From positions 573,068 through 637,067 of the forward strand of contig NZ_FREX01000001.1 in NCBI RefSeq assembly GCF_900143565.1: DNA of 64,000 nucleotides, read 5' to 3'. Within the stretch, counting starts at the first letter, position 1; every line of letters starts with the position of its first letter. This document shows positions 3,942 to 20,867 of the stretch, piece after piece. Under the pieces are notes generated by a model, which made no database searches, had not been told where the DNA came from, and saw nothing but the letters and a program-made list of their open reading frames with translations. The position numbers and the translations under genes are program-made. The DNA comes from Pseudovibrio sp. Alg231-02 (GTDB lineage: Bacteria > Pseudomonadota > Alphaproteobacteria > Rhizobiales > Stappiaceae).

Positions 3942-5080
3942 GCCGCATCCCTCCCGTTCGCCAGTATCCAGTCATTCATGTCCATGCCCAATGGCGGCCA
4001 TAAGATTTGCGCTGAACGCTCCTCAAAGCGCAGGCGCCGCACAGCGCGTTCCAGCTGAGCTTTCAGCGCCTCAAGGTCTTTGGTGTCACTGTCGGCCAAA
4101 ACAATCATGGACCGCGCCTCAAATGGTAAAAACGCCCGGGCGCTGGCCATGTCCGGTTGCCGTGATGGCAACAGGTGGCCAGTACGCACCGGATGCGGCT
4201 CGCAAATCCCGTCTGGTTTGCCAGAGCCCACCAGATTGCCAAGCGAGCCCGCACACCAGCACGAAAGGCCAAAGGGCGCACAGGACAGGCAGGTCTCAAT
4301 GCCCTCACCCACGCCCATCACAGGCGCAGGCGGGCCAAGCCGCAAACTGGTGCCCATATACGGTCCGCGGATCTTTTTGGCCGGCAACCGCAGCCCATCC
4401 TCAAGGCTTAGTTTAATTTTGCCGCTTCCATCTGCATTCAGCCAGGTCTGGTGCACTGCTGCAAACCGGCCCTGCTTGTTTTGAAAGGCCGCCAGCAGCG
4501 CAGGTCCGTGATGGATGATCTCGAAGCGCCCCTTCGCAGTCTCTGCCCAATACGGCAGATCCGCAGCAAACCGCAGCACCGCGCCGGGCAACGGGATGTC
4601 ACCCAGCCCCCGCGCCTCGCGCAGGTAGGTTTCCGCTACACTGCCGGAAAGCTCTGTCCCCGCTGAAAAGATTTTGTAGGCCGCCTGACGCGCTTTTTCC
4701 TGTGTGGTGGCTGTGCGCGCAGCCGCAAGCACCTTGTTGTCCTGCACCAACTTTTGCTGTTTGTCCTGCCAGCGCTGATCACGGGCAATCTGTGCCCCGC
4801 CCAAGGCTTCAACCGCATCAGCAAAGCTGGAAAAGCCCTCAAACTCCATCATCCAGTCGATGATGGATCCGGAGCGGCCACAGGCGGTGGAATAGCAACG
4901 GAAACTGTTGCTGACAGGATCAAGCACAAAGCTGGCATTGCGATCGTCATGGTCGGGAAACGGACATTTACCGGAATACAGACGACCAGATTTGCGCAGC
5001 GTGGTATGGCGGCAAATGCGTCCATAAAGATCCGCAGATTGCTTCAACCGCAACAATTCGAGAGTGGAATACCGCATCAC
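3938..5080 (-). CDS. CHC2 zinc-finger / Toprim primase
   Basis: This 380-residue protein has an N-terminal zinc finger with C39, H43, C62 and C67 (KCPFPDHD..FRCYSTACG), the CHC2 pattern of DnaG-type and P4-type primases. The downstream Toprim-like half contains GEGIET near residue 258 and VLADSD near residue 325, the acidic motifs that bind catalytic magnesium. It makes RNA primers for phage DNA replication. It is followed, with a four-base overlap, by the SF3 helicase, a split version of the single P4 alpha polypeptide. The start at 5080 has GGGAGG eight bases upstream and overlaps the stop of the small zinc protein by four bases, giving a three-gene coupled operon. Confidence 0.88.
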   Translation of the reverse strand: MMRYSTLELLRLKQSADLYGRICRHTTLRKSGRLYSGKCPFPDHDDRNASFVLDPVSNSFRCYSTACGRSGSIIDWMMEFEGFSSFADAVEALGGAQIARDQRWQDKQQKLVQDNKVLAAARTATTQEKARQAAYKIFSAGTELSGSVAETYLREARGLGDIPLPGAVLRFAADLPYWAETAKGRFEIIHHGPALLAAFQNKQGRFAAVHQTWLNADGSGKIKLSLEDGLRLPAKKIRGPYMGTSLRLGPPAPVMGVGEGIETCLSCAPFGLSCWCAGSLGNLVGSGKPDGICEPHPVRTGHLLPSRQPDMASARAFLPFEARSMIVLADSDTKDLEALKAQLERAVRRLRFEERSAQILWPPLGMDMNDWILANGRDAA

Positions 5081-5319
5081 ACCAACCTCCCTTGTTTGGG
5101 TGGTCGTGGCGGCGGAGGCGTGCGTTTGGCAGCCTCAACATCCGCTTCATACTGCTTGGCATGCTCCGGACAAAACCACAACTGCTGACGCTTGCCAGCA
5201 TCATCCACGGTGTAACCACGGGAACCCCAGTTTGTGCAGCCCTCCGCCATGCAAGGATGCTCGGAGTGGCCTGCGACCGTTGTTCTGGGGGATTTACGGA
5301 GATCTATCTTGAGGGTCAT
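5077..5319 (-). CDS. Small putative zinc-binding phage protein
   Basis: This protein of about 80 residues has two pairs of metal-ligand candidates (CMAEGC and CPEH), a short basic N-terminus (LKIDLRKSPR) and a proline/lysine-rich tail. I chose the ATG at 5319 because GAGAGG lies eight bases upstream of it. The alternative GTG at 5328 would sit directly on that ribosome-binding site. It is the first gene of the coupled primase-helicase operon (four-base overlap at 5077-5080). A DNA- or RNA-binding accessory role in replication is possible but not shown. Confidence 0.65.
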   Translation of the reverse strand: MTLKIDLRKSPRTTVAGHSEHPCMAEGCTNWGSRGYTVDDAGKRQQLWFCPEHAKQYEADVEAAKRTPPPPRPPKQGRLV

Positions 5320-5396
5320 GCGGCACACCTCTCAACTGGAGCGTGCATGAGTGAAGAGACTCTGATAGAGCGACAACTGGCAAGATTGAGGGCTAA

Positions 5397-6284
5397 ATGG
5401 AAAATCAGCGTACGTGGAATATTATCATTTTCAGCATCTTGGGAGCAGCTGGTAGCGTCTTCCTCAGCATATTCATTTTGGATTTTCACATTAGTAGAGC
5501 TGGTCTTTGTGCAGGCATATCCATTGACGAACCATGGGCTTGTACCCGCGAATGGATCGGCGCGTTGAGTGGCTGGGCAGCTGCATTTGCAGCAATAGCA
5601 GCTGCCGCGTGGGCTGGATACAAGGTTCAAAAACAGATCACTGAAGCACAGAAGACAAACAGAATTGCTCTCCAACCAATCTTTGCTGAGAGTATCGGTT
5701 GGATGGCTCGCGAAAAGGAGATTTTGCTGAAACTGAATCGTGAAAGCTCCCTGCCTCACGAAGTTAAAACACAACTTGAAATTTTTCGCTCTGCGCTGGT
5801 TGCAATCTACTCTGTCACTTATCCCAACGACATTGCCCGCAACGAGGATCGGCTCAAACGCGTATGTGAAGAAGCTTGGACTAGACTCTCCAAAAGGCGT
5901 GACTGCTTTGTTAGAAACCAGCACTATTTTGATGCCGCAAAATTCCTTTCTATCGACTTGCAAGAAGCCAGAGATACCCTTGTAAAGGTTAGCGAGAGGG
6001 AATTTGAAGATTGCAAAGATTTTTTTGCGCGGGCGACAAAGTTGATAACTGATCCGGCGATCAAAAACTCTGAAGCGCCGCGATCCGCAAGCATTACTCA
6101 GGCTCATGATTTGATCAACTCGTTGGATGAGTTTTTGAGTTCGGAGGAGTTTGAGACAGCTGAAGATAAGAGAATTAAGTTTCTGAACGAGTATTGGCTT
6201 GGATTTAAAAAAGAATATGAGCCCATTAGAGAGAAAGCATATGGGATCATTCATCTTGTTCAAAACGTAGATGACAAAAAGTGA
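5397..6284 (+). CDS. Two-TM membrane protein with long cytoplasmic domain, prophage cargo, paralogue A
   Basis: This is a 295-residue protein of unknown family. A first membrane segment spans about residues 7-29 (IIIFSILGAAGSVFLSIFIL). A second, very alanine-rich one spans about 55-75 (IGALSGWAAAFAAIAAAAWAGY). A coiled-coil-like stretch (VQKQITEAQKTNRIA) and a long charged helical domain follow. GAGG six bases upstream supports the ATG at 5397. It runs against the minus-strand phage operons and is visibly more AT-rich than they are. Its organisation and the motif IGAxSGWAAAxAA...QIxEAQKxN are repeated in the next gene, so the two are tandem paralogues. A role as a cargo gene, such as superinfection exclusion, is inference. 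Confidence 0.7.
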   Translation: MENQRTWNIIIFSILGAAGSVFLSIFILDFHISRAGLCAGISIDEPWACTREWIGALSGWAAAFAAIAAAAWAGYKVQKQITEAQKTNRIALQPIFAESIGWMAREKEILLKLNRESSLPHEVKTQLEIFRSALVAIYSVTYPNDIARNEDRLKRVCEEAWTRLSKRRDCFVRNQHYFDAAKFLSIDLQEARDTLVKVSEREFEDCKDFFARATKLITDPAIKNSEAPRSASITQAHDLINSLDEFLSSEEFETAEDKRIKFLNEYWLGFKKEYEPIREKAYGIIHLVQNVDDKK

Positions 6285-6359
6285 AGTTGCATTTTGATAA
6301 CGCTGCCTCAAAAGAAGACATAAGACATTGTTTGCCTTCACATTAACGGAACAGATCGC

Positions 6360-7205
6360 ATGGAACGGAAAGTTTGGAACCACTTGATCGCTATTACATG
6401 CGGCACCTTCATGAGTGTTGTATTTCTTGCGTGCTTTTGGTCTCAGAACCTCACCCACATCTTGAGCGATAATGTTCTTATTTTTTTCGAACCACTGCAC
6501 ATCGCTGACGCTGAGTTGATTGACTGGATCGGAGCGACAAGTGGTTGGGCAGCCGCTTGTGCGGCTGCAGTAGCGGCATACTTTGCCTACAATGGGGCTG
6601 TTACTCAAATTCAAAAGCTCGAGAAGCAAATAGGAGAAGCGCAAAAAGCAAATAAGATTAACCAAGCACAACATGTGCCAGATGTAATGCAATACTGCTC
6701 TCAAGAACTTAGATCGATTGACTTTGTGACACGCTGGTTGAAAGACATGAGAGATGTTGGTTGGAGAGATGACCAACAGAAACAGTTGCTTTCGAACTAT
6801 AACAATATTTGGTTCCTGTTCTTTGAGCAAAACGAGAATGCGGCAAAGTATAACCCTGGGGCTTCCTATCAAAAGAGACAAGAATTCATTCAGAAATACC
6901 AGTTTTTGTGGGCGTATCATTTGATGATTTCTGAAGCGTATAATGGAGCTCCAATTCCTGACCATGATGTTGCCATCGATGCTTTCTCGAGTGTTCAGGC
7001 TGAATACGCTAAATGTCTCAAATCGAAACAGAAAGATCCATTTGCAAAGGAGATTCAGGAACTGGAAGACATGTTGATTGCTTATAAGAACAGTCTCCCT
7101 GACAATTGGATTGAACAGTTGCATGAATGGCGAGAGAGTGTGGTCATTAAGTATCCTGATGGGAGCAAGCATCACCCCACCTCCTTCACCCGAAGCCCAC
7201 GATAA
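6360..7205 (+). CDS. Two-TM membrane protein with long cytoplasmic domain, prophage cargo, paralogue B
   Basis: This 281-residue protein has the same plan as the preceding gene. A first membrane segment lies near residues 8-28 (LIAITCGTFMSVVFLACFW). An Ala-rich second one lies near 55-75 (DWIGATSGWAAACAAAVAAYFAY). A coiled coil (QIQKLEKQIGEAQKANKIN) and an aromatic-rich helical cytoplasmic domain (NIWFLFFEQNENAAKYNP) follow. The cytoplasmic domains of the two paralogues differ greatly while the membrane and coiled-coil parts are conserved. That would suit a shared membrane anchor with different sensing or effector ends. The gene follows 75 bases after its paralogue, and its 3' end overlaps the convergent BRO gene by 34 bases. 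Function is unknown. Confidence 0.7.
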   Translation: MERKVWNHLIAITCGTFMSVVFLACFWSQNLTHILSDNVLIFFEPLHIADAELIDWIGATSGWAAACAAAVAAYFAYNGAVTQIQKLEKQIGEAQKANKINQAQHVPDVMQYCSQELRSIDFVTRWLKDMRDVGWRDDQQKQLLSNYNNIWFLFFEQNENAAKYNPGASYQKRQEFIQKYQFLWAYHLMISEAYNGAPIPDHDVAIDAFSSVQAEYAKCLKSKQKDPFAKEIQELEDMLIAYKNSLPDNWIEQLHEWRESVVIKYPDGSKHHPTSFTRSPR

Positions 7206-7930
7206 GTCACAATGCGGGCTTTGTTTTTCAGGAAGTTGTAGTCCTGTGAGAGGTGGAGCATGGCGCGACCGAAGGCGGTCTCGGTGATGATGGGGTGGCC
7301 TTCTGTGTGGGCCCAGTCTTTGTAAGCCAGGAACATGGCTCGGGCGGTCTTGGTGTAGTCTGGATCCAGTTGGCATCCCTCCTCGATGAAGGTGCGCAGT
7401 TGCTCTGCTGAGGATGCGACAATGCCGGTTGGAATTTCGGTTTTGCGTGGGGTGAAGGATGAGACCATGGGCAGGTCCAGCTTCTCCCAAAGCTCGCAGG
7501 CAGCGCGTGGACCGGAGATTTTTGCTGCGATCTCCACCAATCTGGATTTGTTGGCAACCTCGGTCAGGCTTCCAAGATCAGCGCGATCAACCAGCCTTTC
7601 ATTGCTTACTGTGTATGCCCCAGTTTTGCGGATGCTCGGCAGAACGTCGTGTGCGAGCCAGCGCTTAAAGCGCTCTGCTTCTGGTTTGCGCGAACGGAAG
7701 ATCAAGCGATAGAGACCGGGTTCAGATATGATAGTCATCTGCTGATCTCCAGAGGGGGTGCCTACAGTATAGGTACCCCTCTCATCTTCATCGAGCAGAT
7801 CAATCGAGTTGCGGGCCTTCTTAATGTCTAGGCAGGTGCAAACATCTTTGCCTACGAACCATGGTTCTCCCTCCAGTTTCACAATGCGAACCAGATTATC
7901 TTCAAAGTCCATGTTGATCAGGTTACTCAT
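7172..7930 (-). CDS. BRO-N antirepressor-type protein with primase-like C-terminal domain
   Basis: The N-terminal half (about residues 5-110) is a BRO-N domain: DFEDNLVRIVKLEGEPWFVGKDVCTCLDIKKARNSIDLLDEDE, then SEPGLYRLIFRSRKPEAERFKRWLAHDVLPSIRKTGAY, which is diagnostic of phage BRO/antirepressor proteins. The C-terminal part (about 185-250: KTARAMFLAYKDWAHTEGHP..TETAFGRAML) resembles the C-terminal winged helix of the SF3 helicase at 2283-3941. I chose the ATG at 7930 because GAGGAG precedes it; an upstream in-frame start exists at 7945. It probably binds DNA and modulates the lytic/lysogenic decision or replication. It lies downstream of rha, with a perfect 25-base palindrome between them. 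Confidence 0.85.
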   Translation of the reverse strand: MSNLINMDFEDNLVRIVKLEGEPWFVGKDVCTCLDIKKARNSIDLLDEDERGTYTVGTPSGDQQMTIISEPGLYRLIFRSRKPEAERFKRWLAHDVLPSIRKTGAYTVSNERLVDRADLGSLTEVANKSRLVEIAAKISGPRAACELWEKLDLPMVSSFTPRKTEIPTGIVASSAEQLRTFIEEGCQLDPDYTKTARAMFLAYKDWAHTEGHPIITETAFGRAMLHLSQDYNFLKNKARIVTYRGLRVKEVG

Positions 7931-7969
7931 GAAACTGCTCCTCAATTTTGCTGTGCGATGGTTTCATCA

Positions 7970-7994
7970 AGGGGGCCCATACTATGGGCCCCCT
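7970..7994. repeat. Perfect 25-base GC-rich palindrome between rha and bro
   Basis: Two 12-base arms (AGGGGGCCCATA and its complement) flank a single central base. It lies 16 bases past the Rha stop and 40 bases before the BRO start. No T-run follows on the minus strand, so it is not a standard terminator. It may be an operator, or an RNA hairpin that sets relative expression. Confidence 0.7.
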
Positions 7995-8009
7995 CGGCAA
8001 TCAGATCAG

Positions 8010-8777
8010 TCATGCCGCTGCTCCCCGCTCGGCAGCTTCGATCAGCTGCATCAGGTCGTTGAAGGTGGAGATGTAGTAGAGAGGTTGGGTTTCGCGCGGG
8101 TTGTTGGGGCTGACTTGGTTTTTGCCGAAGGACAGGCCCTTTTCTGTCAGCAGTTTGAAGCGCTTTTCCTTGCCACTGGTGGAGGTGCGGGTGCGCTCCT
8201 CCAAAATGCCGAGGTCCAACAGCACCTTGTTGACGGTGCGGGCTGAGCGGGTTTCTCCAATTTCCTTAAGCAGAGTTGTGAGCGCCAGACAGGCTCTCTC
8301 ATTGACATAGTCTGGCAGCATGTTGGTTGCGCAGCCGTGGTTGTTGGCCACGGTTTCAATCATCTTCAGCTTGGAGCTGTCAGACATGGCAAGCGCCCGT
8401 CCTGCTGCTTCTGCAACAGCCATTTCCATTTCAATGGAGATGACCTGCGGAGCCCTGTCATAATTGCTGGAAATAAGCCGATCCCGATACTCCAGAAACG
8501 CTTCAACGAGCTTACGTTGACCTTCCTTTGATTTCCGGCCACCAATGAATGGCATTGCAATCAACGCCGCCTTTTCTGACAGCTGATACATCGGCTGCTC
8601 TTTGTTCTGTGCGTTGAGGTAAGAGGACGACGCAAATTCCCGGAGTCCTATTGTCCCCTCATTAATCAATCCCCGCACGCTTCTGAGCACTTCGTCATGC
8701 CGACGCGCAAACACCTCCGCAATCACCAGTGTGTCCGTTACAGGCTTACCATTTTCAATTTTGATCAGATGCTGCAT
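8010..8777 (-). CDS. rha: Rha-family phage regulatory protein
   Basis: Of 255 residues, the first 105 or so are a typical phage Rha (pRha) domain: IENGKPVTDTLVIAEVFARRHDEVLRSVRGLI, then SSYLNAQNKEQPMYQLSEKAALIAMPFIGGRKS and EAFLEYRDRL. The C-terminal half is helical and ends in a winged-helix-like region (ARTVNKVLLDLGILEERTRTS..RFKLLTEKGLSFG), a common fusion in phage antirepressors. The ATG at 8777 has AAGGAG seven bases upstream; an in-frame upstream extension to 8906 lacks a ribosome-binding site. Rha proteins interfere with phage growth in hosts lacking IHF in the founding lambdoid example. Here a regulatory role beside BRO is likely. Confidence 0.88.
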   Translation of the reverse strand: MQHLIKIENGKPVTDTLVIAEVFARRHDEVLRSVRGLINEGTIGLREFASSSYLNAQNKEQPMYQLSEKAALIAMPFIGGRKSKEGQRKLVEAFLEYRDRLISSNYDRAPQVISIEMEMAVAEAAGRALAMSDSSKLKMIETVANNHGCATNMLPDYVNERACLALTTLLKEIGETRSARTVNKVLLDLGILEERTRTSTSGKEKRFKLLTEKGLSFGKNQVSPNNPRETQPLYYISTFNDLMQLIEAAERGAAA

Positions 8778-9046
8778 TCCGAAACTCCTTTGACTGGCAA
8801 AAGCACGCGGGTGGAGTGCCACGCGGATTGGGTGTGGGTGAAAATCTCTTTGTGGTGGGTGAGAAGAAGGGATTGCAGGGTCACAATGGACTGCACCGCC
8901 TCGCACTGATGGGGAGGCAGGTTGTTGCCGAGCGCGTTCATGGCGTGCAAAAGCGCGCCAAACTGGGCCACAGCTAAATCAATACTTTCAAGGGAATTCC
9001 GTAATTCGCGGCACGCACGTGTCGCGTTATCTGCCAGTACTACCAT
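8765..9046 (-). CDS. Small helical phage protein of unknown function
   Basis: A 93-residue reading frame starts at the ATG at 9046, six bases after a very strong GAGGAGG, and ends at 8765, overlapping the rha start by 13 bases. The protein is mainly helical (ATRACRELRNSLESIDLAVAQFGALLHAMNALG, then CEAVQSIVTLQSLLLTHHKEIF), which looks like a genuine small phage protein. It lies inside a much longer open frame that continues leftward against the pentapeptide gene and is otherwise spurious. It is probably the first gene of the minus-strand rha-bro operon. I do not recognise the family. Confidence 0.65.
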   Translation of the reverse strand: MVVLADNATRACRELRNSLESIDLAVAQFGALLHAMNALGNNLPPHQCEAVQSIVTLQSLLLTHHKEIFTHTQSAWHSTRVLLPVKGVSECSI

Positions 9047-9388
9047 GGCAAACCTCCTCGAGTCAGAATATTTCCGACCGCTGGAGGTACCAATCTCTGG
9101 CGGCCAGACGAACAGGATTGGTACTACCACCCTCAAGGCAAGTGGCGCGCGTAAGCGCTCCCGCCCGTCTGACCATGAAAAAGCCGCGATCCAACAGGAA
9201 ACGCGGCGCACGACGAGCGCCAAGAGTTCGGAAGGGGTACCAATCCCCGCACGCCTTTGTGTGACGCGCTCACTGGCAAACCACCAGCTGAGCGGAATCA
9301 TGACCTGATTTGTACCTGTTGTCAACGAGCTCGGAATCGCGGATAGGTTGCGGATGTAATAAGAATACTGATCCAGAGGCGCTTGTAG
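9047..9388. promoter_or_regulatory. Intergenic control region with repeated GGTACCAATC words
   Basis: I see no convincing gene here. The word GGTACCAATC occurs at 9086-9095 and 9236-9245 (inside GGGGTACCAATCCCC, 9234-9248), and its complement GATTGGTAC at 9116-9124. A weaker GATTTGTACC lies at 9307-9316. The region separates the divergently transcribed rha operon and the pentapeptide gene, so the repeats are candidate operators for a phage regulator. That role is inferred only from position and repetition. Confidence 0.45.
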
Positions 9389-11008
9389 ATGTATAGTAGA
9401 CAGGTTGTTACACCAGAAACGTTGGATTTCCGTGACTACGATGAAGCGCAGTGGAACTCTTGGGTCGAGCAAACTCAAGGAGGTTTCCCGAATATTTGGA
9501 TTGATTTGAGTAATGCAAATTTTGAAAAAGCAATAATATCCGGTGCGTCTCTCGTCCGAACAATTATCAGCAAGTCTGAGTTCATGCAGACCAGCTTCGT
9601 CAAAACTGACATGAGTGAAGCCAGTCTCGATTTCTCCACTTTCTTGAACGTCTCTTTGGAAAACGTCAGTCTTGAGCGCGCTAACTTGGAGGCTTTTCAA
9701 TTTAGAAGTGGGCGAGGTTATCAGGTTAAGTTCACCGACGCAGACGCGAGGCGGGCTGAGTTTGATGACGTGACCTTTGAAGACGTCGATTTTACTAAAG
9801 CAAACCTCGAAGCCACGACATTCTTGCTTTGCAGACTTCGTTCGCCTGTTTTTACTCAAGCACGATTGGCCAATGCCGTGTTTGAAGATTGCACTGGAGT
9901 TGAAGCCAAGTTTCGCATGGCTAAATTGCAGAATGCACGTATCGTTTCCTGTAACTTCGTAAAGGCAAATTTTAACCGCGCTCGGCTTAAAGGTGCCAAC
10001 CTTTCGGCAACAAATTTTGAAGGCGCAAACTTCAGATTTGCCAATCTCCAAAACACAACATGCACTGATACCAATTTTAAAGATGCAGATCTCAGAAACG
10101 CGATTTTGACCGATACCAATCTGCTCGATACAAATCTGACTAACGCCGATCTGCGCGGTGCAAATCTCGTCGGCTCCATTTATCAACGAAGTCAACTCAG
10201 AGCCGCAATTACTGATGAGACAACGGTTTTGAATGACGAACAAAGCCCTGAGCAAAAACCGAGCGTATTGGGAGTAGATAAATTTCCGCTGGTTTTTGGC
10301 AGCGAAGAGGACCCTAGCACGTCTAATAAAAGCAAAACCAAAGAGACGATTGCAGAAGCTGCATCCTCTGAGGCTGTGTCCGAAAGCGTAATTGCACCCG
10401 CTGATACACCAGATGCAATCTCCGAGAGTTACGCAGTAGATCCACGCGCGAGCTCCCCAGAAGAGCCCGATGACTTCCACAAAAACTATCAAATTATGCG
10501 AGTTACCACACCGATCTCGTTCACTAAAGCTGATGGAAGCGAACAAAGGGTCATCCTTGAAAGTGTTGCAATCGCAATGAGAGGCAAAGGAAACAGCCTG
10601 AGTTTGCTTTTTGACCAAATTCGAGATGACTTGTTTAAAGACGAAGATTTTGAGGTGGATATAACCGGCAAGACTTGGTTTGAAGGTCTTACTAAGGATT
10701 GGCTCTCCAAAGATGAGATGAATGACTGCTACAATGCTGTTCGGAGTTCGATGGAGTTTGAAAATGCCGTTCCGTATTTTGGTAGTTTGAAAAACCTGAC
10801 ACCCAAACAGATGGCGGGCCTCGTCACGTTTGTCTCTACAGTTGGCTTGAAAGCATACACGATCGGTGTCTTGGCACTGGGGTCTTCCATTATTTTCCTT
10901 AGGGTTTGCGAAGCATCGGGAGAAGGACTTGCGGACATAATTCGAGCGAAGTGTCAGCAAGTTGTTAGACGTATCGAGGCTAAGGACAAGGAGCTGGAAG
11001 ACAACTAG
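9389..11008 (+). CDS. Pentapeptide-repeat protein with C-terminal membrane segment, prophage cargo
   Basis: The 539-residue protein contains a long run of A(D/N)LXX-type pentapeptide repeats from about residue 40 to 270 (for example DLRNAILTDTNLLDTNLTNADLRGANL), predicting a right-handed quadrilateral beta-helix. An acidic Ser/Pro-rich linker follows (about 280-360), then a globular domain (about 365-490: YQIMRVTTPISFTKADGSEQRV). Near the end is a hydrophobic segment (about 498-518: TIGVLALGSSIIFLRVC). It is plus-strand and AT-rich inside a minus-strand phage module. The next gene starts directly after its stop. The family is functionally broad (DNA-gyrase mimicry, scaffolds, unknown membrane roles), so phage exclusion or defence is only a hypothesis. 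Confidence 0.75.
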   Translation: MYSRQVVTPETLDFRDYDEAQWNSWVEQTQGGFPNIWIDLSNANFEKAIISGASLVRTIISKSEFMQTSFVKTDMSEASLDFSTFLNVSLENVSLERANLEAFQFRSGRGYQVKFTDADARRAEFDDVTFEDVDFTKANLEATTFLLCRLRSPVFTQARLANAVFEDCTGVEAKFRMAKLQNARIVSCNFVKANFNRARLKGANLSATNFEGANFRFANLQNTTCTDTNFKDADLRNAILTDTNLLDTNLTNADLRGANLVGSIYQRSQLRAAITDETTVLNDEQSPEQKPSVLGVDKFPLVFGSEEDPSTSNKSKTKETIAEAASSEAVSESVIAPADTPDAISESYAVDPRASSPEEPDDFHKNYQIMRVTTPISFTKADGSEQRVILESVAIAMRGKGNSLSLLFDQIRDDLFKDEDFEVDITGKTWFEGLTKDWLSKDEMNDCYNAVRSSMEFENAVPYFGSLKNLTPKQMAGLVTFVSTVGLKAYTIGVLALGSSIIFLRVCEASGEGLADIIRAKCQQVVRRIEAKDKELEDN

Positions 11009-11431
11009 ATGACCACCTTGCCCCCTGCTCCACCGAAACCTTTCCGCTCCTATTTGCCAGGACAACTGCGTGGGTTTGGGTTTGTTTTTGCGGGTAATTT
11101 GTGGAGCCTGGGCGTCTATCTGATTTATCAGGGTAGCGCGTTGCGGGACTGGTTTCTGGCCGGGTTTCTCTGGATTGTTGGGGCGGTTCTCGTTTACTGG
11201 CTGGCAACACGGATAAACCCCGTTTTCAGCCCGCTCAAAGCCCTGCTGGTCACCCTGTTCTTTCAAGTGCAGATGTTCGCCGCCATCGCGTTCATCCGCA
11301 TTAGTCTGGCGGATTTCAAGATTGAGGCCCTCAACCAGCTGACCATCACCCAAATGGTTCTGGCCGTCTACATCCTCATGATCCCCATAACCCTCCTCAC
11401 CGCCTTCATAAGCTGGGTGAGGCAGAGTTGA
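11009..11431 (+). CDS. Small multi-pass membrane protein
   Basis: This is a 140-residue protein with about four hydrophobic segments (near residues 22-42, 46-66, 72-95 and 112-135). A proline-rich N-terminus (TTLPPAPPKPFRSYLPG) precedes them. Its ATG immediately follows the stop codon of the pentapeptide gene (TAGATG), suggesting translational coupling. It is more GC-rich than both flanking pentapeptide genes, which hints at a different origin for each part of the insert. I recognise no family. It may form a membrane complex with the neighbouring membrane-anchored pentapeptide proteins. Confidence 0.6.
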   Translation: MTTLPPAPPKPFRSYLPGQLRGFGFVFAGNLWSLGVYLIYQGSALRDWFLAGFLWIVGAVLVYWLATRINPVFSPLKALLVTLFFQVQMFAAIAFIRISLADFKIEALNQLTITQMVLAVYILMIPITLLTAFISWVRQS

Positions 11432-11571
11432 CCCTGCTCTGAGCGCCTGACCCATCACGCAGCAACCCTCCAATTGCCATTGGACGACCAGCATCCTCTG
11501 GTTGAAGACTCAGGGACGCACAGCCTAGTGTGCAACGCAGTTACTTTATGCAGTTTTGAGAGCTGAGATTG

Positions 11572-12657
11572 ATGTCTACATTTGGCAATAACCATCTTAC
11601 TGGCGTTGACATTGTGAAGGTCACACTGATCTGTTTTGTTGGCATTATTTTTTTGGCGGTACTCTTCTTCGTGATCTTTCCGCCAGGCGGTTTCTTTCCT
11701 TTTTGGGGAGGCCCAGAAGCTAACCGAGCTGAAGTTCTTAGAAATATTGGATTGTCTCTTCTCGGTGCAGTTGGTCTGCCGTTCGTTATTTGGCGTAGCA
11801 TAACCGCTCACAGAGAAGCCCTGCATTCTGCTGAAAATCTTCGGCTGTCTGAGCGAGGTCAAAATATCGATCGAATGAAAAATGCATTTGAGTTGTTGAA
11901 CTCTGAACTCAGGTTCAGCAGAGAAACTGGCATAATTATTCTGAAAGAAGTTTTCGCAAGCGCTGATGAACTTAGCAAGCTTAGCAACATTCAGGTTATG
12001 ACTAGCTACTTCAACGACAAATGCAGAGTTGAAAAGAATAAATGGCTGCGAGAGATCGATGGAATTGATAATGAAGGCGAAATTACACGGATGAAAAATA
12101 GTCGTGTCCTGCGGCAAGACATTACTCTCGCACTGGAAACGCTGAGCTTTCTTAATAGAAGCCTTCACACTGAGCTGACAAAATCGGTTTCTTTGCAGCT
12201 GCAAAAAGCTTATCTTTGCAACTACCCAGGTAGTCAGAGCACCCTCTTCCTCTCCAATGCAGACTTGACCCAAGCAGACATGGAAAATGGACAGTTTGCG
12301 GGTACCTATTGGACTAAGGCGACATTGAGTGGAGCAGATTTGCGATCTGCTAACCTGAGGGGTGGCTTCTTCGAAGAAGCTAAGTTGATACAGGCGCTTA
12401 TGCAGCGCACTGATTTTAGAAACGCTAAGCTGCATTATGCTAACTTCGAAAATGCCATACTTGTCGATGCCTGCTTTGTGGGTGCTGATCTTTCGGAAGC
12501 CAATTTCACTGACGCGGTAGTTGTAGGCGCGCTTGTGGAGGAGCAATGGATGCACCTGTTTACTGAGGTTCAACGACGCTCTCTCAATATCGTAGATCAC
12601 GTTGGAAATATTATCCGACCATCCTCTAGTGAAGATCTTCGCTCGCAATCCGCCTAA
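11572..12657 (+). CDS. Membrane-anchored pentapeptide-repeat protein, prophage cargo
   Basis: This protein of about 361 residues has two N-terminal membrane segments (about residues 17-38 VTLICFVGIIFLAVLFFVIF and 62-80 IGLSLLGAVGLPFVIWRS). A helical charged middle region follows (HREALHSAENLRLSERGQN, then RMKNAFELL) up to about residue 220. A C-terminal block of pentapeptide repeats completes it (about 225-325: LSNADLTQADMENGQF.., LSGADLRSANL). I preferred the ATG at 11572 over the TTG three bases before it. It is AT-rich and plus-strand like the other cargo, and its end is five bases from the convergent HTH gene. Together with 9389-11431 it forms a candidate three-gene membrane system. Confidence 0.72.
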   Translation: MSTFGNNHLTGVDIVKVTLICFVGIIFLAVLFFVIFPPGGFFPFWGGPEANRAEVLRNIGLSLLGAVGLPFVIWRSITAHREALHSAENLRLSERGQNIDRMKNAFELLNSELRFSRETGIIILKEVFASADELSKLSNIQVMTSYFNDKCRVEKNKWLREIDGIDNEGEITRMKNSRVLRQDITLALETLSFLNRSLHTELTKSVSLQLQKAYLCNYPGSQSTLFLSNADLTQADMENGQFAGTYWTKATLSGADLRSANLRGGFFEEAKLIQALMQRTDFRNAKLHYANFENAILVDACFVGADLSEANFTDAVVVGALVEEQWMHLFTEVQRRSLNIVDHVGNIIRPSSSEDLRSQSA

Positions 12658-12662
12658 CCCCC

Positions 12663-13181
12663 TCACGCCACAGCCCTCCGTGCATTCAGCAGTTCGCTTG
12701 GGCGTGGTGCGCCTACCTGAGTGCAGTAGCGGTTGACCGCTCGGCAGACGACGTGGACGCTGACGCCGGAAGCGTGTGCGATGCGCTCATAGTTCCAGTC
12801 GAACTGGCAGCTGAGGCCGTAGTAGAAGCAGCCGCGGCAGAAGACATCCTGCTTTCGTTTGCTGTTTGAGGTGAACAGGCGGCCCACGGGCACCTTGCAG
12901 GTTTTAGCTACACCGGATGCAAAGGTCCGGACGTCCTCCGGCAAGGCCTTAAACAGTCGGATTTGCGGGGGGAGGTCGGCATCCCTGCTCTGCACCGGAT
13001 AGAGCGCCACACCGCCCGAAACAGGCACACCAGACAGGATGATCCGTTCAGCTGTCTCTGTCTTGATAACGTTCTCCACGTCACCCTCTGAGCAACCATA
13101 GATGCCTGCGATGGCGCGGAGGCTCATGTTGTTGAGGTGGTGCTGCACAATTCTGCGCCGGATTTTGGGGGACTGGATCAT
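12663..13181 (-). CDS. Phage HTH protein
   Basis: The 172-residue protein has an N-terminal helix-turn-helix (HLNNMSLRAIAGIYGCSEGDVENVI, about residues 15-40). A second one lies near the C-terminus (YERIAHASGVSVHVVCRAVNRYC, about 132-155), the latter resembling a DnaA domain IV-like fold. Three cysteines near residues 115-125 (CRGCFYYGLSC) might bind metal. Its start overlaps the stop of the CII-like gene by four bases, so the two are co-expressed early. It could act in replication initiation or transcription control; the sequence alone does not decide. Confidence 0.65.
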   Translation of the reverse strand: MIQSPKIRRRIVQHHLNNMSLRAIAGIYGCSEGDVENVIKTETAERIILSGVPVSGGVALYPVQSRDADLPPQIRLFKALPEDVRTFASGVAKTCKVPVGRLFTSNSKRKQDVFCRGCFYYGLSCQFDWNYERIAHASGVSVHVVCRAVNRYCTQVGAPRPSELLNARRAVA

Positions 13182-13672
13182 CTGGCCGGCTCCCTCTCAA
13201 TGGCTTCGCAGGTTTTGTCCAGCTTGACGGCCACGCTGATCAGCTCGGCAATTTCTCTGCGCAGGTGGTGGCGTTTCACTTCATCGGCTGTGACTTTGCC
13301 ATCATCCTTCAGGCATTCAGCCACGCGGGAGAGAACATCTGAGAATTCCTTTGAGAGCTGACCCATGTTGCCGACCCAATCCGGCTCTGCCGCTTCCCGT
13401 GGGAGTTTGACCAGCGTGTGGCCGCTCATGCGTGCCAGGATGCGGGTGAGCACGGGATCTGCGGCCTCGTGTTCCAGATCGGCAATCACGTCCACCGGCA
13501 TGGCGTCATGGCTCTGCTGGTTGCCATAGCGGGAGAGCTGGCACGGTGCGACGCGGGTGACCATACTGGCAGCTTCCACACCGCCATTCAGCTTCACCAG
13601 AGCTTTGGAGTAGGCAAACAGGCGGGAATAGTCAGATTCCGGCAGGGTGCGACTGGTTTGTGAGCGGGACAT
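13178..13672 (-). CDS. CII-like phage regulatory protein (CP76 family)
   Basis: The 164-residue protein carries the typical phage CII/CP76 pattern: a helical N-terminus, then QLSRYGNQQSHDAMPVDVIADLEHEAADPVLTRILARMSGHTLVKLP at about residues 45-95. A helical C-terminus (FSDVLSRVAECLKDDGKVTADEVKRHHLRREIAELI) follows. Such proteins control the lytic/lysogenic switch. It sits between the Cro-like gene and the HTH gene on the minus strand, and overlaps the latter by ATGA. The position in the early operon agrees with the family. Confidence 0.8.
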   Translation of the reverse strand: MSRSQTSRTLPESDYSRLFAYSKALVKLNGGVEAASMVTRVAPCQLSRYGNQQSHDAMPVDVIADLEHEAADPVLTRILARMSGHTLVKLPREAAEPDWVGNMGQLSKEFSDVLSRVAECLKDDGKVTADEVKRHHLRREIAELISVAVKLDKTCEAIEREPAR

Positions 13673-16520: not shown

Positions 16521-19500
16521 TCAGACGAACTGGAAGTCATCAATCAGGAGATCTTCTTTCAGCACACCGAGTAAGGTGATGCTGCTATTTTCGTCCAGCA
16601 TGATGACTGTGCCAGTGCCTTCATTACTGGCAGCTTCAATCACACTTTCAAAATCTGCAAAGACATCGCTATCTAGGCGAATGATGTCATCCGACCCACC
16701 TCCAACTACAAAGTCAGTAATCACATCATTGCCAAAATCATCGCCTGAGAAATCGAAGGTGTCAGAACCTGAACCGCCGGTTAAGCGGTCGTTTCCGCGT
16801 CCACCGTTTAGCTGATCATCCCCTCCATAAGCCCAGATACTGTTGTCACCGGCATCACCTGTGAGGACATCACCGTAAGCATCCGTGCCCTTGATATTTT
16901 CGATGGAGATATATTCATCTCCAGCCGCATCACCTGCATTTTGAGACTGATCGGAGAGGTTAACGGTGACAGCAGTCTTCGACCAGTAGTATCTGACCGT
17001 ATCGGTTCCTTCACCACCATCAAGATAGTCCGCTCCTGAACCGTAACCATTAAGCGTGTCATTTCCTTCGCCACCATAAAGGCGGTCAATGCCACTTTGG
17101 GCATAAAGGGCGTTATCGTTGCTGTCACCGATCAGCAGATCATCGTAATGAGAGCCCGAAACATGTTCTATATTGACAAGGACATCTCCGGTAGCATGGC
17201 CACCACTGGCAGTATTTTCGGCGAGGTTGATCGTTACTCCTGCATCTGATTCACGATAGAAGGCAATGTCAGAACCAGAACCACCATCAAGGCGATCTGC
17301 GCCGGCCCCGCCAAACAGATAATCATTTCCTTCACCGCCGTTGAGCTGATCATCTCCTCCAAAACCCCAGAGCTCATTGTTACCAGCGTCACCTGTGAGG
17401 GTATCACTATAAGCTTCTGTACCTTTGATGTTTTCTATGGAGAAGTATTCATCGCCGACAGCATCACCTGCATTCTGAGACTGGTCGGAGAGATTAACGG
17501 TGACGGCAGCCTGCGACCAGCGGTATTTTACCGTATCACTTCCTTCCCCACCATCAAGATAGTCTGCTCCCGAACCGGACGCATTAAGTGTGTCGTTTCC
17601 CTCTCCGCCATAGAGAGCATCATCACCACCATAGCCCCAGATCTCATTGTCACCTGCATCACCTATGAGAGTATCCCCGTAAGCATCCGTGCCCATGATA
17701 TTTTCGATGGAGATGTATTCATCGCCTGCCGCATCACCTGCATTCTGAGACTGGTCGGAGAGATTGACGGTAACTGCTGCGTGCGACCAGCGGTATCTTA
17801 CCGCATCGGTCCCTTCACCACCATCAAGATAGTCCGCCCCTGAACCATAAGCATTGAGCGAGTCATTTCCTTCGCCACCATAAAGGCGGTCAATGCCACT
17901 TTGGGCATAAAGGGCGTTATTGTTGCTGTCACCGATCAGAAGATCATCGTAATGAGAGCCCTCAACATGTTCTATATTGACAAGGACATCTCCGGTAGCA
18001 TGGCCACCACTGGCAGTATTTTCGGCGAGGTTGATCGTTACTCCTGCATCTGATTCACGATAGAAGGCAGTGTCAGAACCAATGCCCCCGTCAAGATGAT
18101 CGGCACCGGCCCCGCCAAACAGATAATCGTTACCTTCTCCGCCGTTTAGCTGATCATCACCTCCCAACCCCCAGAGTTCATTGTTGCCAGCGTCGCCTGT
18201 GAGGATATCGCCATAAGCATATGTACCTTTGACGTTTTCAATGGAGATGTATTCATCGCCTGCGGCATCACCTGCATTCTGAGACTGATCGGAGAGATTG
18301 ACAGTGACAGACGCATTTGAAAGCAGATAGCGAACGGTATCTTTTCCTTCACCACCGTTAATACGTTCCGCCAGATCTCCGGCAGAAATCTTGTCGTTGC
18401 CATCAGTACCAGTTAACTCAACACGGACATCATTCAACACCTCAATCTTGCTGAGCGTCGTCCCGTCAGCAAACTCAAATCGTTCAACTTGCTCGCCTAT
18501 GTTGGCGATCTGGAGCTGACCGGCAGGCCTATCGCCTAATGCATGCCAAGAGAGTTTTAGTGCGGTACCGTTGTCGTCATTGTGATCAATTATTGTAATT
18601 GTAAGGTCAAGAAAAGACAGATCCTCAAAGACAACCGTATCATACCCTCCGTCATCGACTTCAGTAGTATAGTCAATCATCGTTGATCCACTATCTGCCC
18701 GGATCAAATATGTATCATCTCCTAGACTCCCGGTCAGTACTTCGCTGTCTCCTGTAACTGTCACAATGGCTGTTGCAGCTGAGCTTTCTCCGGCGCTGTC
18801 TGTAACCGTATAAGTGAAGGTATCAGTGATAGATTCACCAAGACCTAGAGAGCCAACCAGATTTGTCGGATCATAAGAGAATGTATCATCATCATTCACG
18901 GTCACTGAACCGAGAGCGTTGGTGGTATCCACACTGAAGCTGTGTGTATCTGAGGTATCTGCATCAGAGTAAGACGGCGTAATGACAACAGAACTGTCTT
19001 CGTTAGTCTCGCTAAAAACTTCAGCTGCTACAGGAGCGTCATTAGTTCCGGTGATCGTCATAGTCACTGTCTTTGTGACGACACCGCCATTGCCATCATT
19101 CACTGTATAGGTGAAAGTATCAGTCGCACTCTCTCCTACAACAAGATGCTCAAATTGGCCATTTGGATTGTATTGGAAGCTTCCATCAACCAGAGTGACC
19201 TGCCCAGTGGTTTCACTGGCATCTACGGTGACGGTATGAGTGTCTGAGACCTCAGCATCTGAGAAAGCTGGTTCTATAAAGACGCTTTCACCCTCAGAAG
19301 TTGTTGCTGCGATATCATCAACAACGGGTGCATCGTTCACACCGCTGATTTTAATCGTAACAGTTTCCGTGGAGGTCGCACCGGAACTGTCGGTAACGGT
19401 ATAAGTGAACGTATCGGTGGCAGTTTCATCAGCTGTAAGGCCATCAAACTGGCCCTGCGGATGATAGGAGAATGTACCGTCATCATTCACGGTAACCGAG

Positions 19501-20867
19501 CCACGTGTATTGGTGGTATCCACACTGAAGCTGTGAGTGTCTGAAGTATCTGCATCAGAATAAGACGGCGTAATGACAACAGAACTGTCTTCGTTAGTCT
19601 CAGCAGAGACTTCAGCTGTTACAGGAGCATCATTAGTTCCGTTGATTGTCACAGTCACAGTCTTTGTGACCACGCCACCATGGCCATCATCAACGGTATA
19701 AGTGAAAGTATCGATCTTGCTTTCACCTATGCTCAGATATTCAAACTGTCCATTCGGGTTATATTGTAAGCTACCATCAACCTGAGTGACCTCACCGATG
19801 GTTCCGCTGGTATCAACTGTGATGATGTGAGTATCTGAGGTATCAGCGTCTGAGAAAACCGGTTCGATCAGAACGCTTTCTTCCTCAGAAGTTTCCGCTG
19901 CAAGCTCAGAAACAACAGGCACATCATTCAAGCCGCTGATTGTAATCCTAACAGTTTCCACTGAGGTAGCACCAGAACTGTCCGTGACAGTATAGGTGAA
20001 ACTATCAGTTGCAGTCTCACCAGCTGTAAGGCCGTCAAACTGGCCTTGCGGATGATACGAGAATGTACCATCATCATTAACGGTAACCGAGCCAAGAGTG
20101 CTGGTGGTATCCACGCTGAAGCTATGAGTATCTGAGGCGTCTGCATCAGAGTAGGAAGGCGTGATGATAACGGAACTGTCTTCGTTAGTCTCACCAGAAA
20201 CTTCTGCAGCTATAGGGGCATCATTTTCACCAGTAATGGTGATGGTAACCTGCGCTCCTGCACTGGCCCAAGAGCCATCAGTAACAACATAAAAAAAGCT
20301 GTCTGTCGCCGTTTCGCCAGCACCTAAATGATCGAACTTCCCATCAGTGTCATAGCTGAATGTGCCGTCAGCGTTTGTTATGACTGCACCTGCAGTGTTT
20401 GTATTAATGATACTAACGATATGCGTATCCGATGCGTCTACATCAGAATAGGAAGGGGTTATAGTAACTGCACTGCCTTCACCTGTGGTTTCGCTCGAAG
20501 CAAAAGCTACAGGACCATCGTTAGAACCAAAGAGCTCTATAGTGACTGTCGCTGATGAACTGGCCCCGGAACTATCGATCACTGTATATGTAAACGTATC
20601 TGTCGTTTTCTCGCCCAAAGCCAGATACTCAAACCGCCCTGCTGGATTGTAAGAGAACGTACCATCATCATTGATTGTGACCGAGCCAAGCGTGTTGGTG
20701 GTATCTACGGTGAAAGTGTGTGTATCGGCAGAATCGCTATCGTAAAAAGCAGGTGTGATTTTATGAGAAGAGCTTTCGCCCCCTCCTATTGCGACAGGAA
20801 AGGCAGAGGGTACAAAATTTGTCATTTGAGATACCATAGATTCATCATGCATAATTGCATCATGCAT
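16521..20867 (-). CDS. Large VCBS/cadherin-like and RTX calcium-binding secreted protein
   Basis: The protein has 1,448 residues. After a short N-terminus come seven VCBS/cadherin-like repeats of about 98 residues (about 30-720), each with a DTxSDTHxFxVD..GSVTxNDDGTFSY..TDTFTYTVTDSxGA core. Two subtypes partly alternate (3, 5, 7 versus 4, 6). A linker follows, then many RTX nonapeptides (GGEGNDxLxG, about 850-1400) and a C-terminal region ending in DDFQFV. This is the plan of adhesins or biofilm proteins exported by type I secretion through an uncleaved C-terminal signal, with calcium bound by the RTX turns. No secretion genes lie nearby. Starts are ambiguous (ATG at 20867, 20852, 20837 or 20825); none has a good ribosome-binding site. 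Confidence 0.9.
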   Translation of the reverse strand: MHDAIMHDESMVSQMTNFVPSAFPVAIGGGESSSHKITPAFYDSDSADTHTFTVDTTNTLGSVTINDDGTFSYNPAGRFEYLALGEKTTDTFTYTVIDSSGASSSATVTIELFGSNDGPVAFASSETTGEGSAVTITPSYSDVDASDTHIVSIINTNTAGAVITNADGTFSYDTDGKFDHLGAGETATDSFFYVVTDGSWASAGAQVTITITGENDAPIAAEVSGETNEDSSVIITPSYSDADASDTHSFSVDTTSTLGSVTVNDDGTFSYHPQGQFDGLTAGETATDSFTYTVTDSSGATSVETVRITISGLNDVPVVSELAAETSEEESVLIEPVFSDADTSDTHIITVDTSGTIGEVTQVDGSLQYNPNGQFEYLSIGESKIDTFTYTVDDGHGGVVTKTVTVTINGTNDAPVTAEVSAETNEDSSVVITPSYSDADTSDTHSFSVDTTNTRGSVTVNDDGTFSYHPQGQFDGLTADETATDTFTYTVTDSSGATSTETVTIKISGVNDAPVVDDIAATTSEGESVFIEPAFSDAEVSDTHTVTVDASETTGQVTLVDGSFQYNPNGQFEHLVVGESATDTFTYTVNDGNGGVVTKTVTMTITGTNDAPVAAEVFSETNEDSSVVITPSYSDADTSDTHSFSVDTTNALGSVTVNDDDTFSYDPTNLVGSLGLGESITDTFTYTVTDSAGESSAATAIVTVTGDSEVLTGSLGDDTYLIRADSGSTMIDYTTEVDDGGYDTVVFEDLSFLDLTITIIDHNDDNGTALKLSWHALGDRPAGQLQIANIGEQVERFEFADGTTLSKIEVLNDVRVELTGTDGNDKISAGDLAERINGGEGKDTVRYLLSNASVTVNLSDQSQNAGDAAGDEYISIENVKGTYAYGDILTGDAGNNELWGLGGDDQLNGGEGNDYLFGGAGADHLDGGIGSDTAFYRESDAGVTINLAENTASGGHATGDVLVNIEHVEGSHYDDLLIGDSNNNALYAQSGIDRLYGGEGNDSLNAYGSGADYLDGGEGTDAVRYRWSHAAVTVNLSDQSQNAGDAAGDEYISIENIMGTDAYGDTLIGDAGDNEIWGYGGDDALYGGEGNDTLNASGSGADYLDGGEGSDTVKYRWSQAAVTVNLSDQSQNAGDAVGDEYFSIENIKGTEAYSDTLTGDAGNNELWGFGGDDQLNGGEGNDYLFGGAGADRLDGGSGSDIAFYRESDAGVTINLAENTASGGHATGDVLVNIEHVSGSHYDDLLIGDSNDNALYAQSGIDRLYGGEGNDTLNGYGSGADYLDGGEGTDTVRYYWSKTAVTVNLSDQSQNAGDAAGDEYISIENIKGTDAYGDVLTGDAGDNSIWAYGGDDQLNGGRGNDRLTGGSGSDTFDFSGDDFGNDVITDFVVGGGSDDIIRLDSDVFADFESVIEAASNEGTGTVIMLDENSSITLLGVLKEDLLIDDFQFV
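17081..18130. repeat. Near-identical 804-bp duplication inside the RTX gene
   Basis: The segment beginning at 17081 (GGCGGTCAATGCC...) recurs from 17885 with only scattered differences for at least 240 bases. The offset is 804 bases, that is 268 codons, so the frame is kept. It encodes the repeated RTX block from the AVTVNLSDQSQNAGDA unit through the ADYLDGGEG unit. Third-position identity indicates a recent duplication or gene conversion. Confidence 0.75.

What the first reader, a model, noticed from the sequence alone, without database searches (positions are those of the whole stretch)
5397..12657. Two plus-strand cargo inserts in a minus-strand phage replication/control module, made mostly of membrane proteins
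Seen: within 5.3-13.7 kb the phage genes run left, yet two blocks (5397-7205 and 9389-12657) run right and are visibly AT-richer. They encode five proteins, all with membrane segments, two of them carrying pentapeptide repeats. Known: phages and satellites carry such blocks at hotspots as exclusion or defence genes. Inference: these are moron loci, and the five proteins may form one or two undescribed membrane-based anti-phage systems.
Basis: partly seen in the sequence, partly recalled or inferred. Interest (0 to 1): 0.8.

Follow-up and report, generated by a model that had tools for sequence, protein, structure and literature searches.

The report
Swappable membrane-gene cassettes in prophages
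A prophage family of marine Pseudovibrio bacteria has two slots, read against the virus's own genes, where membrane and pentapeptide-repeat genes are exchanged singly around a constant small membrane gene; they may be tools that dormant viruses use to keep other viruses out, but this has not been tested.

Summary
Two plus-strand blocks (5397-7205, 9389-12657) interrupt leftward prophage genes. Three cassettes are AT-rich (GC 0.44-0.47; flanks 0.54-0.59), but the middle gene B2 (11009-11431) has phage-like GC (0.54). B1's single membrane stretch is borderline.
Twelve related prophages were compared, the window's included. The genes before and after B2 are exchanged, with edges within about 60 bp of start or stop codons (median 29% and 30% amino-acid identity), while B2 is kept (median 92%; in 10 of 12). 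Gene 1 and the last gene reassort independently. Up to four extra small membrane genes stand behind B2, the later ones preceded by B2 3' remnants. B1, B2 and B3 alleles are under purifying selection.
Site A of the window encodes a two-helix anchor family (W-[IV]-[SG]-A-x-S-G-W). Of 53 viral loci, all have lower GC than their surroundings; in 31 both neighbours, in 20 one neighbour, lie on the other strand.
Best reading: moron hotspots for membrane-based superinfection exclusion or abortive infection. B1/B2 resembles a RexAB-type sensor and 4-TM channel in layout only. No defence model matched convincingly; defence is inferred. New variant of a known kind.

The parts
5337..7173 (+). Site A cassette (exchanged DNA), GC 0.44
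   Evidence: DNA similarity stops at 5336-5362 and resumes at 7164-7174 in L021, L036, L037, L039/L033, L043
5397..6284 (+). A1, 295 aa; two N-terminal hydrophobic segments with the motif REWIGALSGWAA, variable remainder
   Evidence: ORF; hydropathy; motif in A9/A10; 38% identical allele in L027
6360..7205 (+). A2, 281 aa, same family (DWIGATSGWAAA); its 3' end overlaps the convergent Bro-N gene by 34 bp
   Evidence: ORF; alignments
9349..10984 (+). Site B left cassette (exchanged DNA), GC 0.457
   Evidence: Left edge 9348-9392, right edge 10985-11005 in L021, L035, L036, L039, L040, L043; in L037 and L041 similarity runs on to about 10536
9389..11008 (+). B1, 539 aa: pentapeptide-repeat solenoid, low-confidence linker about 284-360, C-terminal domain 366-539 found only in this phage lineage by the searches made; one borderline hydrophobic stretch
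   Evidence: Pfam PF00805 7.5e-36; AF2 model: solenoid well, C-terminal part poorly predicted; C-domain searches
11009..11431 (+). B2, 140 aa, four hydrophobic segments (22-40, 49-67, 78-96, 116-134); constant gene; its ATG follows the B1 stop directly
   Evidence: 86-98% aa identity among 10 prophages; dN/dS 0.19; hydropathy
11443..11574 (+). Conserved leader before the last gene, ending at the TTGATG start
   Evidence: All or part of it matches at 82-94% in L021, L037, L040, L041, L043 and twice in L044; no such match in the array prophages L035, L036, L039 and none visible for G005 in the alignment
11569..12657 (+). B3, 362 aa: TM helix 12-36, long helix 53-110 that includes TM2, helical connector to about 203, pentapeptide solenoid from about 215 to 324
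9297..9325 (-). Leftward sigma-70-like promoter TTGACA-17-CATGAT, inside the conserved stretch upstream of gene 1
   Evidence: 10 of 12 positions; 11 promoter-like sites found against 7.4 +/- 2.5 expected, so weak alone; upstream stretch nearly invariant in 10 alleles
5077..5328 (-). EsV-1-7-like Cys-rich protein, left flank of site A
   Evidence: E 0.0045, under the Pfam cut-off
7172..7945 (-). Bro-N antirepressor, right flank of site A
8010..8906 (-). Rha-family regulator
12663..13181 (-). HTH_23 protein, right flank of site B
13178..13672 (-). CII/CP76-like regulator used to find the related prophages

Best explanation
Sites A and B are accessory ('moron') hotspots of a temperate phage lineage of Pseudovibrio, expressed against the lytic transcripts, most likely in the lysogen, to stop other phages at the inner membrane. 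Gene 1 (B1 or its TM-pentapeptide alternative) and the last gene (B3 or alternatives) would be exchangeable recognition or trigger proteins: a pentapeptide solenoid held near the membrane. B2, the constant 140-residue 4-TM protein encoded directly behind gene 1, would be the common membrane effector (channel or depolariser) or anchor; the extra 142-149-aa genes behind B2 in some prophages would be modulators or spare specificities. Site A genes would be exclusion proteins with a conserved two-helix anchor and variable remainders. SHOWN by sequence: swap pattern, constancy of B2, arrays, orientation, selection on B1-B3. INFERRED: lysogen expression, co-translation, exclusion function, sensor and effector roles. 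My probabilities: accessory hotspot about 0.9; phage exclusion or defence about 0.6; gene 1 + B2 as a RexAB-like sensor-channel pair about 0.3.
For: Stretches adjoining the blocks in the G015 sister prophage (P. ascidiaceicola) are 86-89% identical in DNA while A1, A2, B1 and B3 are replaced and B2 stays 94% identical in protein. The same edges recur in other related prophages. Gene 1 median 29% (9 alleles, 36 pairs; the interrupted G005 copy left out), B2 median 92% (10, 45), B3-type last gene median 30% (7, 21; the two of L044, the one of G013 and the 106-aa alternatives left out); B3 of L030 and L031 are 96% identical although their gene-1 types differ, so the two positions reassort. Arrays of small TM genes separated by B2 3' remnants, including an exact 666-bp duplication. 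Purifying selection on B1-B3. No insert seen in L042. A-family: 53 of 53 loci below local GC; both neighbours on the other strand in 31, one in 20, none in 2; both opposite in 15 of 95 control ORFs. Antisense position is described as characteristic of moron loci (PMC7067206, passages). RexB, Sbash gp31 and Butters gp31 are 4-TM partners of soluble proteins in prophage defence (passages: PMC7542560, PMC12894663, PMC6426596). P2/P4 hotspots are ~1-5 kb variable loci between two conserved genes (PMC9122126, passages).
Against: No defence model matched convincingly. B1 shows no DUF4747, which RexA and Sbash gp30 share. The NCBIfam HalA match of B1 is 40 bits against a cut-off of 250, in repeats only. 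No expression data and no plus-strand promoter-like site in the gaps before A1 or gene 1. Relatives of B3's TM-helical part are not generally antisense: of 24 loci outside the lineage, both neighbours are opposite in 3, one in 15, none in 6, many away from obvious phage genes. A-type profile matches also occur in 8 of 101 related genomes, the window's included, whose context I did not check beyond the known prophages. B2 was found only in this lineage.
Confidence: 0.6

Rival explanations
1. Lysogenic-conversion morons that serve host fitness (membrane stress, envelope, life on invertebrate hosts), not phage exclusion.
For: Many morons do this (recalled); membrane and pentapeptide proteins are compatible with it; TM-pentapeptide relatives also lie outside phage-like regions; A-type matches in 8 of 101 related genomes.
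Against: Allelic diversification to about 30% identity within one phage lineage beside a constant gene fits an arms race better than a stable host benefit. The A-family anchor was found in 53 viral loci but, of 289 genomes drawn from the class, only in the window's own.
Confidence: 0.2
2. Polymorphic toxin or addiction module: gene 1 or B2 is toxic, the 142-149-aa genes are immunity genes and the array is an orphan-immunity array.
For: Arrays with truncated B2 ends and an exact tandem duplication; these genes evolve faster (mean dN/dS 0.43, one close pair about 1).
Against: The truncated gene in the array is the constant B2, not the variable gene 1; no such gene was found in the window, L037, L040, L041 and G005; gene 1 and the last gene reassort, so no fixed toxin-immunity pair is visible.
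Confidence: 0.12
3. Lytic-cycle functions (holin-like or replication-associated membrane proteins) that happen to lie on the other strand.
For: Small 4-TM proteins resemble holins in size (recalled); the sites lie in a replication/control module.
Against: Opposite strand to the lytic genes; no insert seen at either site in L042; no holin Pfam hit for the five window proteins (one L036 site A allele has a sub-threshold BhlA hit, E 0.036).
Confidence: 0.06

Closest known systems
[quoted passage not shown] passages read)
   Same: Small loci (about 1-5 kb) of high gene turnover between two conserved phage genes
   Different: There many different systems occupy the slot. Here most alleles belong to the same few families and one gene (B2) stays; no known system was recognised
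RexAB-type prophage systems: lambda RexAB, Sbash gp30/31, CarolAnn gp44/43, RexABpp, Butters gp30/31 (PMC6426596, PMC12894663, PMC7542560; passages read)
   Same: Two-gene unit of a larger, mainly soluble protein and a small 4-TM protein, carried by a prophage
   Different: B1 is a pentapeptide solenoid without DUF4747; B2 gave no significant family match; extra PPR-TM gene and arrays; not in the repressor operon
P22 SieA superinfection exclusion (PMC10883804; passages read)
   Same: Prophage inner-membrane exclusion protein existing in sequence types under 30% identical
   Different: SieA is a single 162- or 164-aa protein with three predicted TM segments
Hailong HalA (PDB 9nyi; NCBIfam NF051894)
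   Same: Pentapeptide repeats in an anti-phage effector, called an ion channel in PMC13275509 (passage read): precedent for PPR plus membrane
   Different: Match limited to repeats, far below cut-off; no HalB-like gene recognised beside the locus
MfpA/Qnr pentapeptide proteins
   Same: Solenoid fold of B1 and B3
   Different: Here fused to membrane or lineage-specific domains

Membership tests
Prophage accessory (moron) hotspot, P2/P4-like | Small locus of high turnover between two conserved phage genes | tested here: met
Prophage accessory (moron) hotspot, P2/P4-like | Antisense to lytic genes, deviating GC | tested here: met
   frequent for the A-family
Prophage accessory (moron) hotspot, P2/P4-like | Expressed in lysogens from an own promoter | not testable with these tools
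   No RNA data; no plus-strand promoter-like site in the gaps before A1 or gene 1
Prophage accessory (moron) hotspot, P2/P4-like | Contains known or validated anti-phage systems | tested here: not met
   PADLOC (2023 library): five window proteins and 10 proteins of sister loci, only weak hits. So an accessory hotspot, but not a proven anti-phage one
RexAB-type system | Small membrane partner with four TM segments | tested here: met
   B2, 140 aa, four hydropathy peaks, the first weak
RexAB-type system | RexA-like partner with DUF4747 | tested here: not met
   B1 has no DUF4747 hit at E up to 1. Not filed as RexAB
RexAB-type system | Infection-triggered membrane depolarisation | not testable with these tools
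   Needs experiment
Hailong (HalA/HalB) | HalA model above its cut-off | tested here: not met
   40 bits against 250 for B1; no HalA row for B3
Hailong (HalA/HalB) | HalB partner gene beside it | tested here: inconclusive
   None among the neighbours scanned, but HalB was not searched for with its own model
Pentapeptide-repeat proteins (PF00805) | Repeat model above cut-off; solenoid predicted | tested here: met
SieA-type exclusion proteins | Sequence similarity to SieA | not tested
   Compared from the paper's passages only

The most novel reading that the evidence does not exclude
A mix-and-match membrane defence locus: one constant 4-TM partner (B2) is served by interchangeable pentapeptide-solenoid proteins that reassort independently on either side of it between prophages, while a cassette array behind B2 grows by recombination at repeated B2 ends. 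B2 would then be a common effector that many evolved sensors can plug into, and the two-helix A-family a parallel set of anchored exclusion proteins spread through phage replication modules.
Probability: 0.3. Interest if true: 0.8.

Novelty: new variant of a known kind. Interest (0 to 1): 0.55.

Why it matters
It gives a compact natural set of alleles in which a constant membrane protein meets many interchangeable partners, so specificity could be mapped by swapping genes. It also points to a two-helix membrane-anchor family of phages that gave no convincing match in the PHROGs, PADLOC and Pfam searches made here (A1, A2 and up to nine relatives) and could be screened for exclusion activity. 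If only ordinary morons, it still shows prophage cassettes exchanged at near single-gene resolution around a fixed gene.

Tried and rejected
Rejected: (1) 'one or two coherent five-gene systems': exchange is per gene, and gene 1 and the last gene reassort. (2) Hailong member: repeat-only match. (3) RexAB member: no DUF4747. (4) Selfish or neutral insert: dN/dS well under 1 for B1, B2, B3 and type-2 gene 1 (the A2 comparison and the window pairs for B1's C-terminal part gave no value; A1 was not tried).

Led nowhere: tblastn of A1 and of two A-family relatives against 50,697 phage records, no match; B1 matched 12 records at repeat level only, none covering 80% of it. PHROGs: no hit for A1 or, at E 0.01, for eight A-family relatives; weak for A2 (best 0.009) and B2 (0.23); repeat-driven for B1 and B3. 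B1's C-terminal domain: no credible PDB or Pfam hit; its AF2 part is too poor to use. VIA-align lists were filled by solenoids, so the other parts of B1 and B3 were barely tested; plain Foldseek against PDB or viral models never ran. HalA was not among the rows shown; this excludes nothing. An A-type profile found no member among ORFs beside 24 TM-pentapeptide loci, so the like-looking two-helix genes following some of them (L097, L256, L257) are not claimed as A-family. A listing for an orphan-immunity precedent gave nothing usable.

Caveats: ORF choice uses a GC-by-codon-position heuristic. The 53 loci are not independent (they include members the profile was built on, several prophages of this genus and four look-alike contigs L191/192/194/197), so the Fisher p (2.3e-7) is descriptive. 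Hydrophobic genes may have skewed GC anyway. In one search at most 20 candidates per genome were scored. Two site A alleles (L036 227 aa, L039 253 aa) lack the motif, so site A is not filled by one family alone. The hosts of most IMG/VR prophages are inferred from similarity. The twelve prophages were found through B2 or the CII-like protein, which favours this lineage.
Full report
WHERE IT IS. The window is G000:C8:573068-637067 of a 5.96 Mb genome. Its same-genus relatives G015 and G005 have contigs of 159,194 and 397,502 bases, the lengths of NZ_FOSK01000013.1 (Pseudovibrio ascidiaceicola DSM 16392) and NZ_BAZK01000001.1 (P. denitrificans JCM 12308) that the B2 search returned, so the host is a Pseudovibrio (inference). 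The first 14 kb of the window are the right part of a prophage that continues left of the window.

THE OBSERVATION. Five plus-strand ORFs lie among minus-strand genes for a tail protein, primase, DUF7146/Toprim, Bro-N, Rha, HTH_23 and CII-like proteins. The blocks are AT-rich except B2. Four of the five have clear membrane segments by hydropathy; B1 has one borderline stretch. B1 and B3 carry pentapeptide repeats.

RELATED PROPHAGES. A primase search matched 14 of 101 genomes; the closest besides the own were G015 (96%) and G013 (64%), both of the genus. Scans of IMG/VR found B2 in 9 loci and the CII-like protein in 11; the best hit in each is the window's own prophage (same contig, L025/L034; 100% over 9955 bases). 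I compared 12 prophages: the window, L035-L044 (ten; L038 matches G015, L041 matches G009, L033 and L032 are other cuts of L039 and L043) and G005/L046. G013 is more distant and was used only for protein alleles. Ten of the 12 carry B2; L042 and L044 do not. In L042 no plus-strand insert was seen at either site, but several usual flanking genes (Bro-N, Rha) are missing there too and other minus-strand genes take the space. L044 has two B3-type genes and no B2. Site A holds one or two two-helix membrane genes in the window, L036, L037, L038, L039, L043 and L044; none was seen in L040, L041, L042 and G005, which also lack some flanking genes; in L035 the stored contig ends too early to tell.

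HOW IT VARIES. Flanking DNA shared with the window is 73-98% identical, mostly above 80%. Similarity stops at 5336-5362 and returns at 7164-7174 (site A); at site B it stops at 9348-9392, returns at 10985-11005, stops again after B2 or at 11568-11574, and returns at 12645-12663. These edges fall within about 60 bp of start or stop codons. Exceptions: in L037 and L041 similarity to the window runs on through the first 382 residues of B1 to about 10536, so there mainly the C-terminal part differs. Gene 1 is of two types: B1-like, or a 492-532 aa protein with two pairs of hydrophobic segments and two pentapeptide regions. All end directly before the ATG of B2. Median identities are 29% for gene 1 (range 19-87), 92% for B2 (86-98) and 30% for B3 (26-96). 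L030 and L031 share a B3 (96%) but have different gene-1 types. Behind B2, L035, L036, L039, L038 and L043 carry 3, 2, 4, 1 and 1 genes of a 142-149 aa TM family; later copies are preceded by a remnant of the B2 3' end (42, 36 or 18 codons), and L033 contains an exact 666-bp tandem duplication (shifted match exact over 705 nt). The last gene is B3-type or, in L035, L036 and L039, a 106-aa protein with two hydrophobic segments. About 100 bp upstream of gene 1 is nearly invariant in 10 alleles and holds a leftward promoter-like site, so its conservation may serve the leftward operon.

SELECTION. NG86 dN/dS: B2 0.19 (45 pairs), B1 first 382 residues 0.27 (3 pairs), B1 C-terminal part 0.18 (1 pair), B3 0.16 (1 pair), type-2 gene 1 0.195 (1 pair, dS saturated at 1.9), small array genes 0.43 on average with one close pair about 1. 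Apart from the array genes these look like constrained proteins. The G005 copy of gene 1 has an interrupted frame.

WIDER DISTRIBUTION. B2: 4 of 87 family genomes, all in the genus, own included, and 2 loci in the pattern scan of GTDB contigs. B1's C-terminal domain: 1 of 289 class genomes, the window's own, and 5 viral loci. The TM-helical N-terminal part of B3: 25 of 201 relatives and 16 of 190 class genomes, own included, a broad family seen in phage-like (by eye: L094, L096, L097, L098) and other contexts; of 24 loci outside the lineage both neighbours are opposite in 3, one in 15, none in 6. The A-family: an early profile matched 8 of 101 relatives and 15 viral loci; the anchor profile matched 53 viral loci but, among 289 class genomes, only the window's own. 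In the 12 viral loci L133-L144 (two of them near-identical) the right neighbour is on the opposite strand in 12 and the left in 11. In all 53: both neighbours opposite 31, one 20, none 2, against 15 of 95 control ORFs with both opposite; GC below the locus in 53. Parts beyond the anchor fall into 23 similarity clusters, the largest of 28. Nine nearby genes scanned include DnaB helicases (3), methyltransferases (2), Toprim/DUF7146, FtsK gamma, PAPS reductase and HTH_36.

WHAT IT WORKS LIKE. Orientation against the lytic genes is described as characteristic of moron loci (PMC7067206, passages). The gene-1/B2 pair has the layout of RexAB-type systems (PMC7542560, PMC12894663, PMC6426596; passages). 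P22 SieA shows that prophage membrane exclusion proteins can exist as types under 30% identical, and the two types compared did not differ in targets (PMC10883804, passages); so allelic diversity here need not mean different targets. HalA shows that pentapeptide repeats can belong to a defence membrane effector (passage). Membership in RexAB or Hailong was tested and not met.

NOT IN PRINT? Searches (listings only, apart from the papers named with passages) showed no description of this locus; most subscription papers are not held, so this is weak.

VERDICT. A real, unusually clean accessory hotspot with near single-gene exchange around a constant 4-TM gene; defence is the likeliest function but unproven.

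Noticed in passing
16521-20867 (-): Large 1448-aa ORF with VCBS-like and RTX-like repeats just beyond the CI-like gene; families named from memory, not searched.
   Followed up: no
L033 6411-7781; also arrays in L035, L036, L039: Small TM-gene arrays with repeated B2 3' ends, including an exact 666-bp tandem duplication: recent array growth.
   Followed up: partly
L099 (G005) about 8081-9594: Gene 1 of the P. denitrificans prophage has an interrupted reading frame between its repeat half and its C-terminal half.
   Followed up: partly
L254, L256, L257, L096, L097: TM-pentapeptide genes outside this lineage are followed on the same strand by a second membrane gene: another protein of that kind (L254, L096) or a two-helix protein not significantly related to the A-family (L256, L257, L097).
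   Followed up: partly
9297-9325 (-): Promoter-like site for the leftward operon (TTGACA-17-CATGAT), conserved upstream of gene 1.
   Followed up: partly
L023 18094-18885: The G013 prophage carries a plus-strand gene with weak BRCT and DUF533 Pfam hits near the corresponding site.
   Followed up: partly
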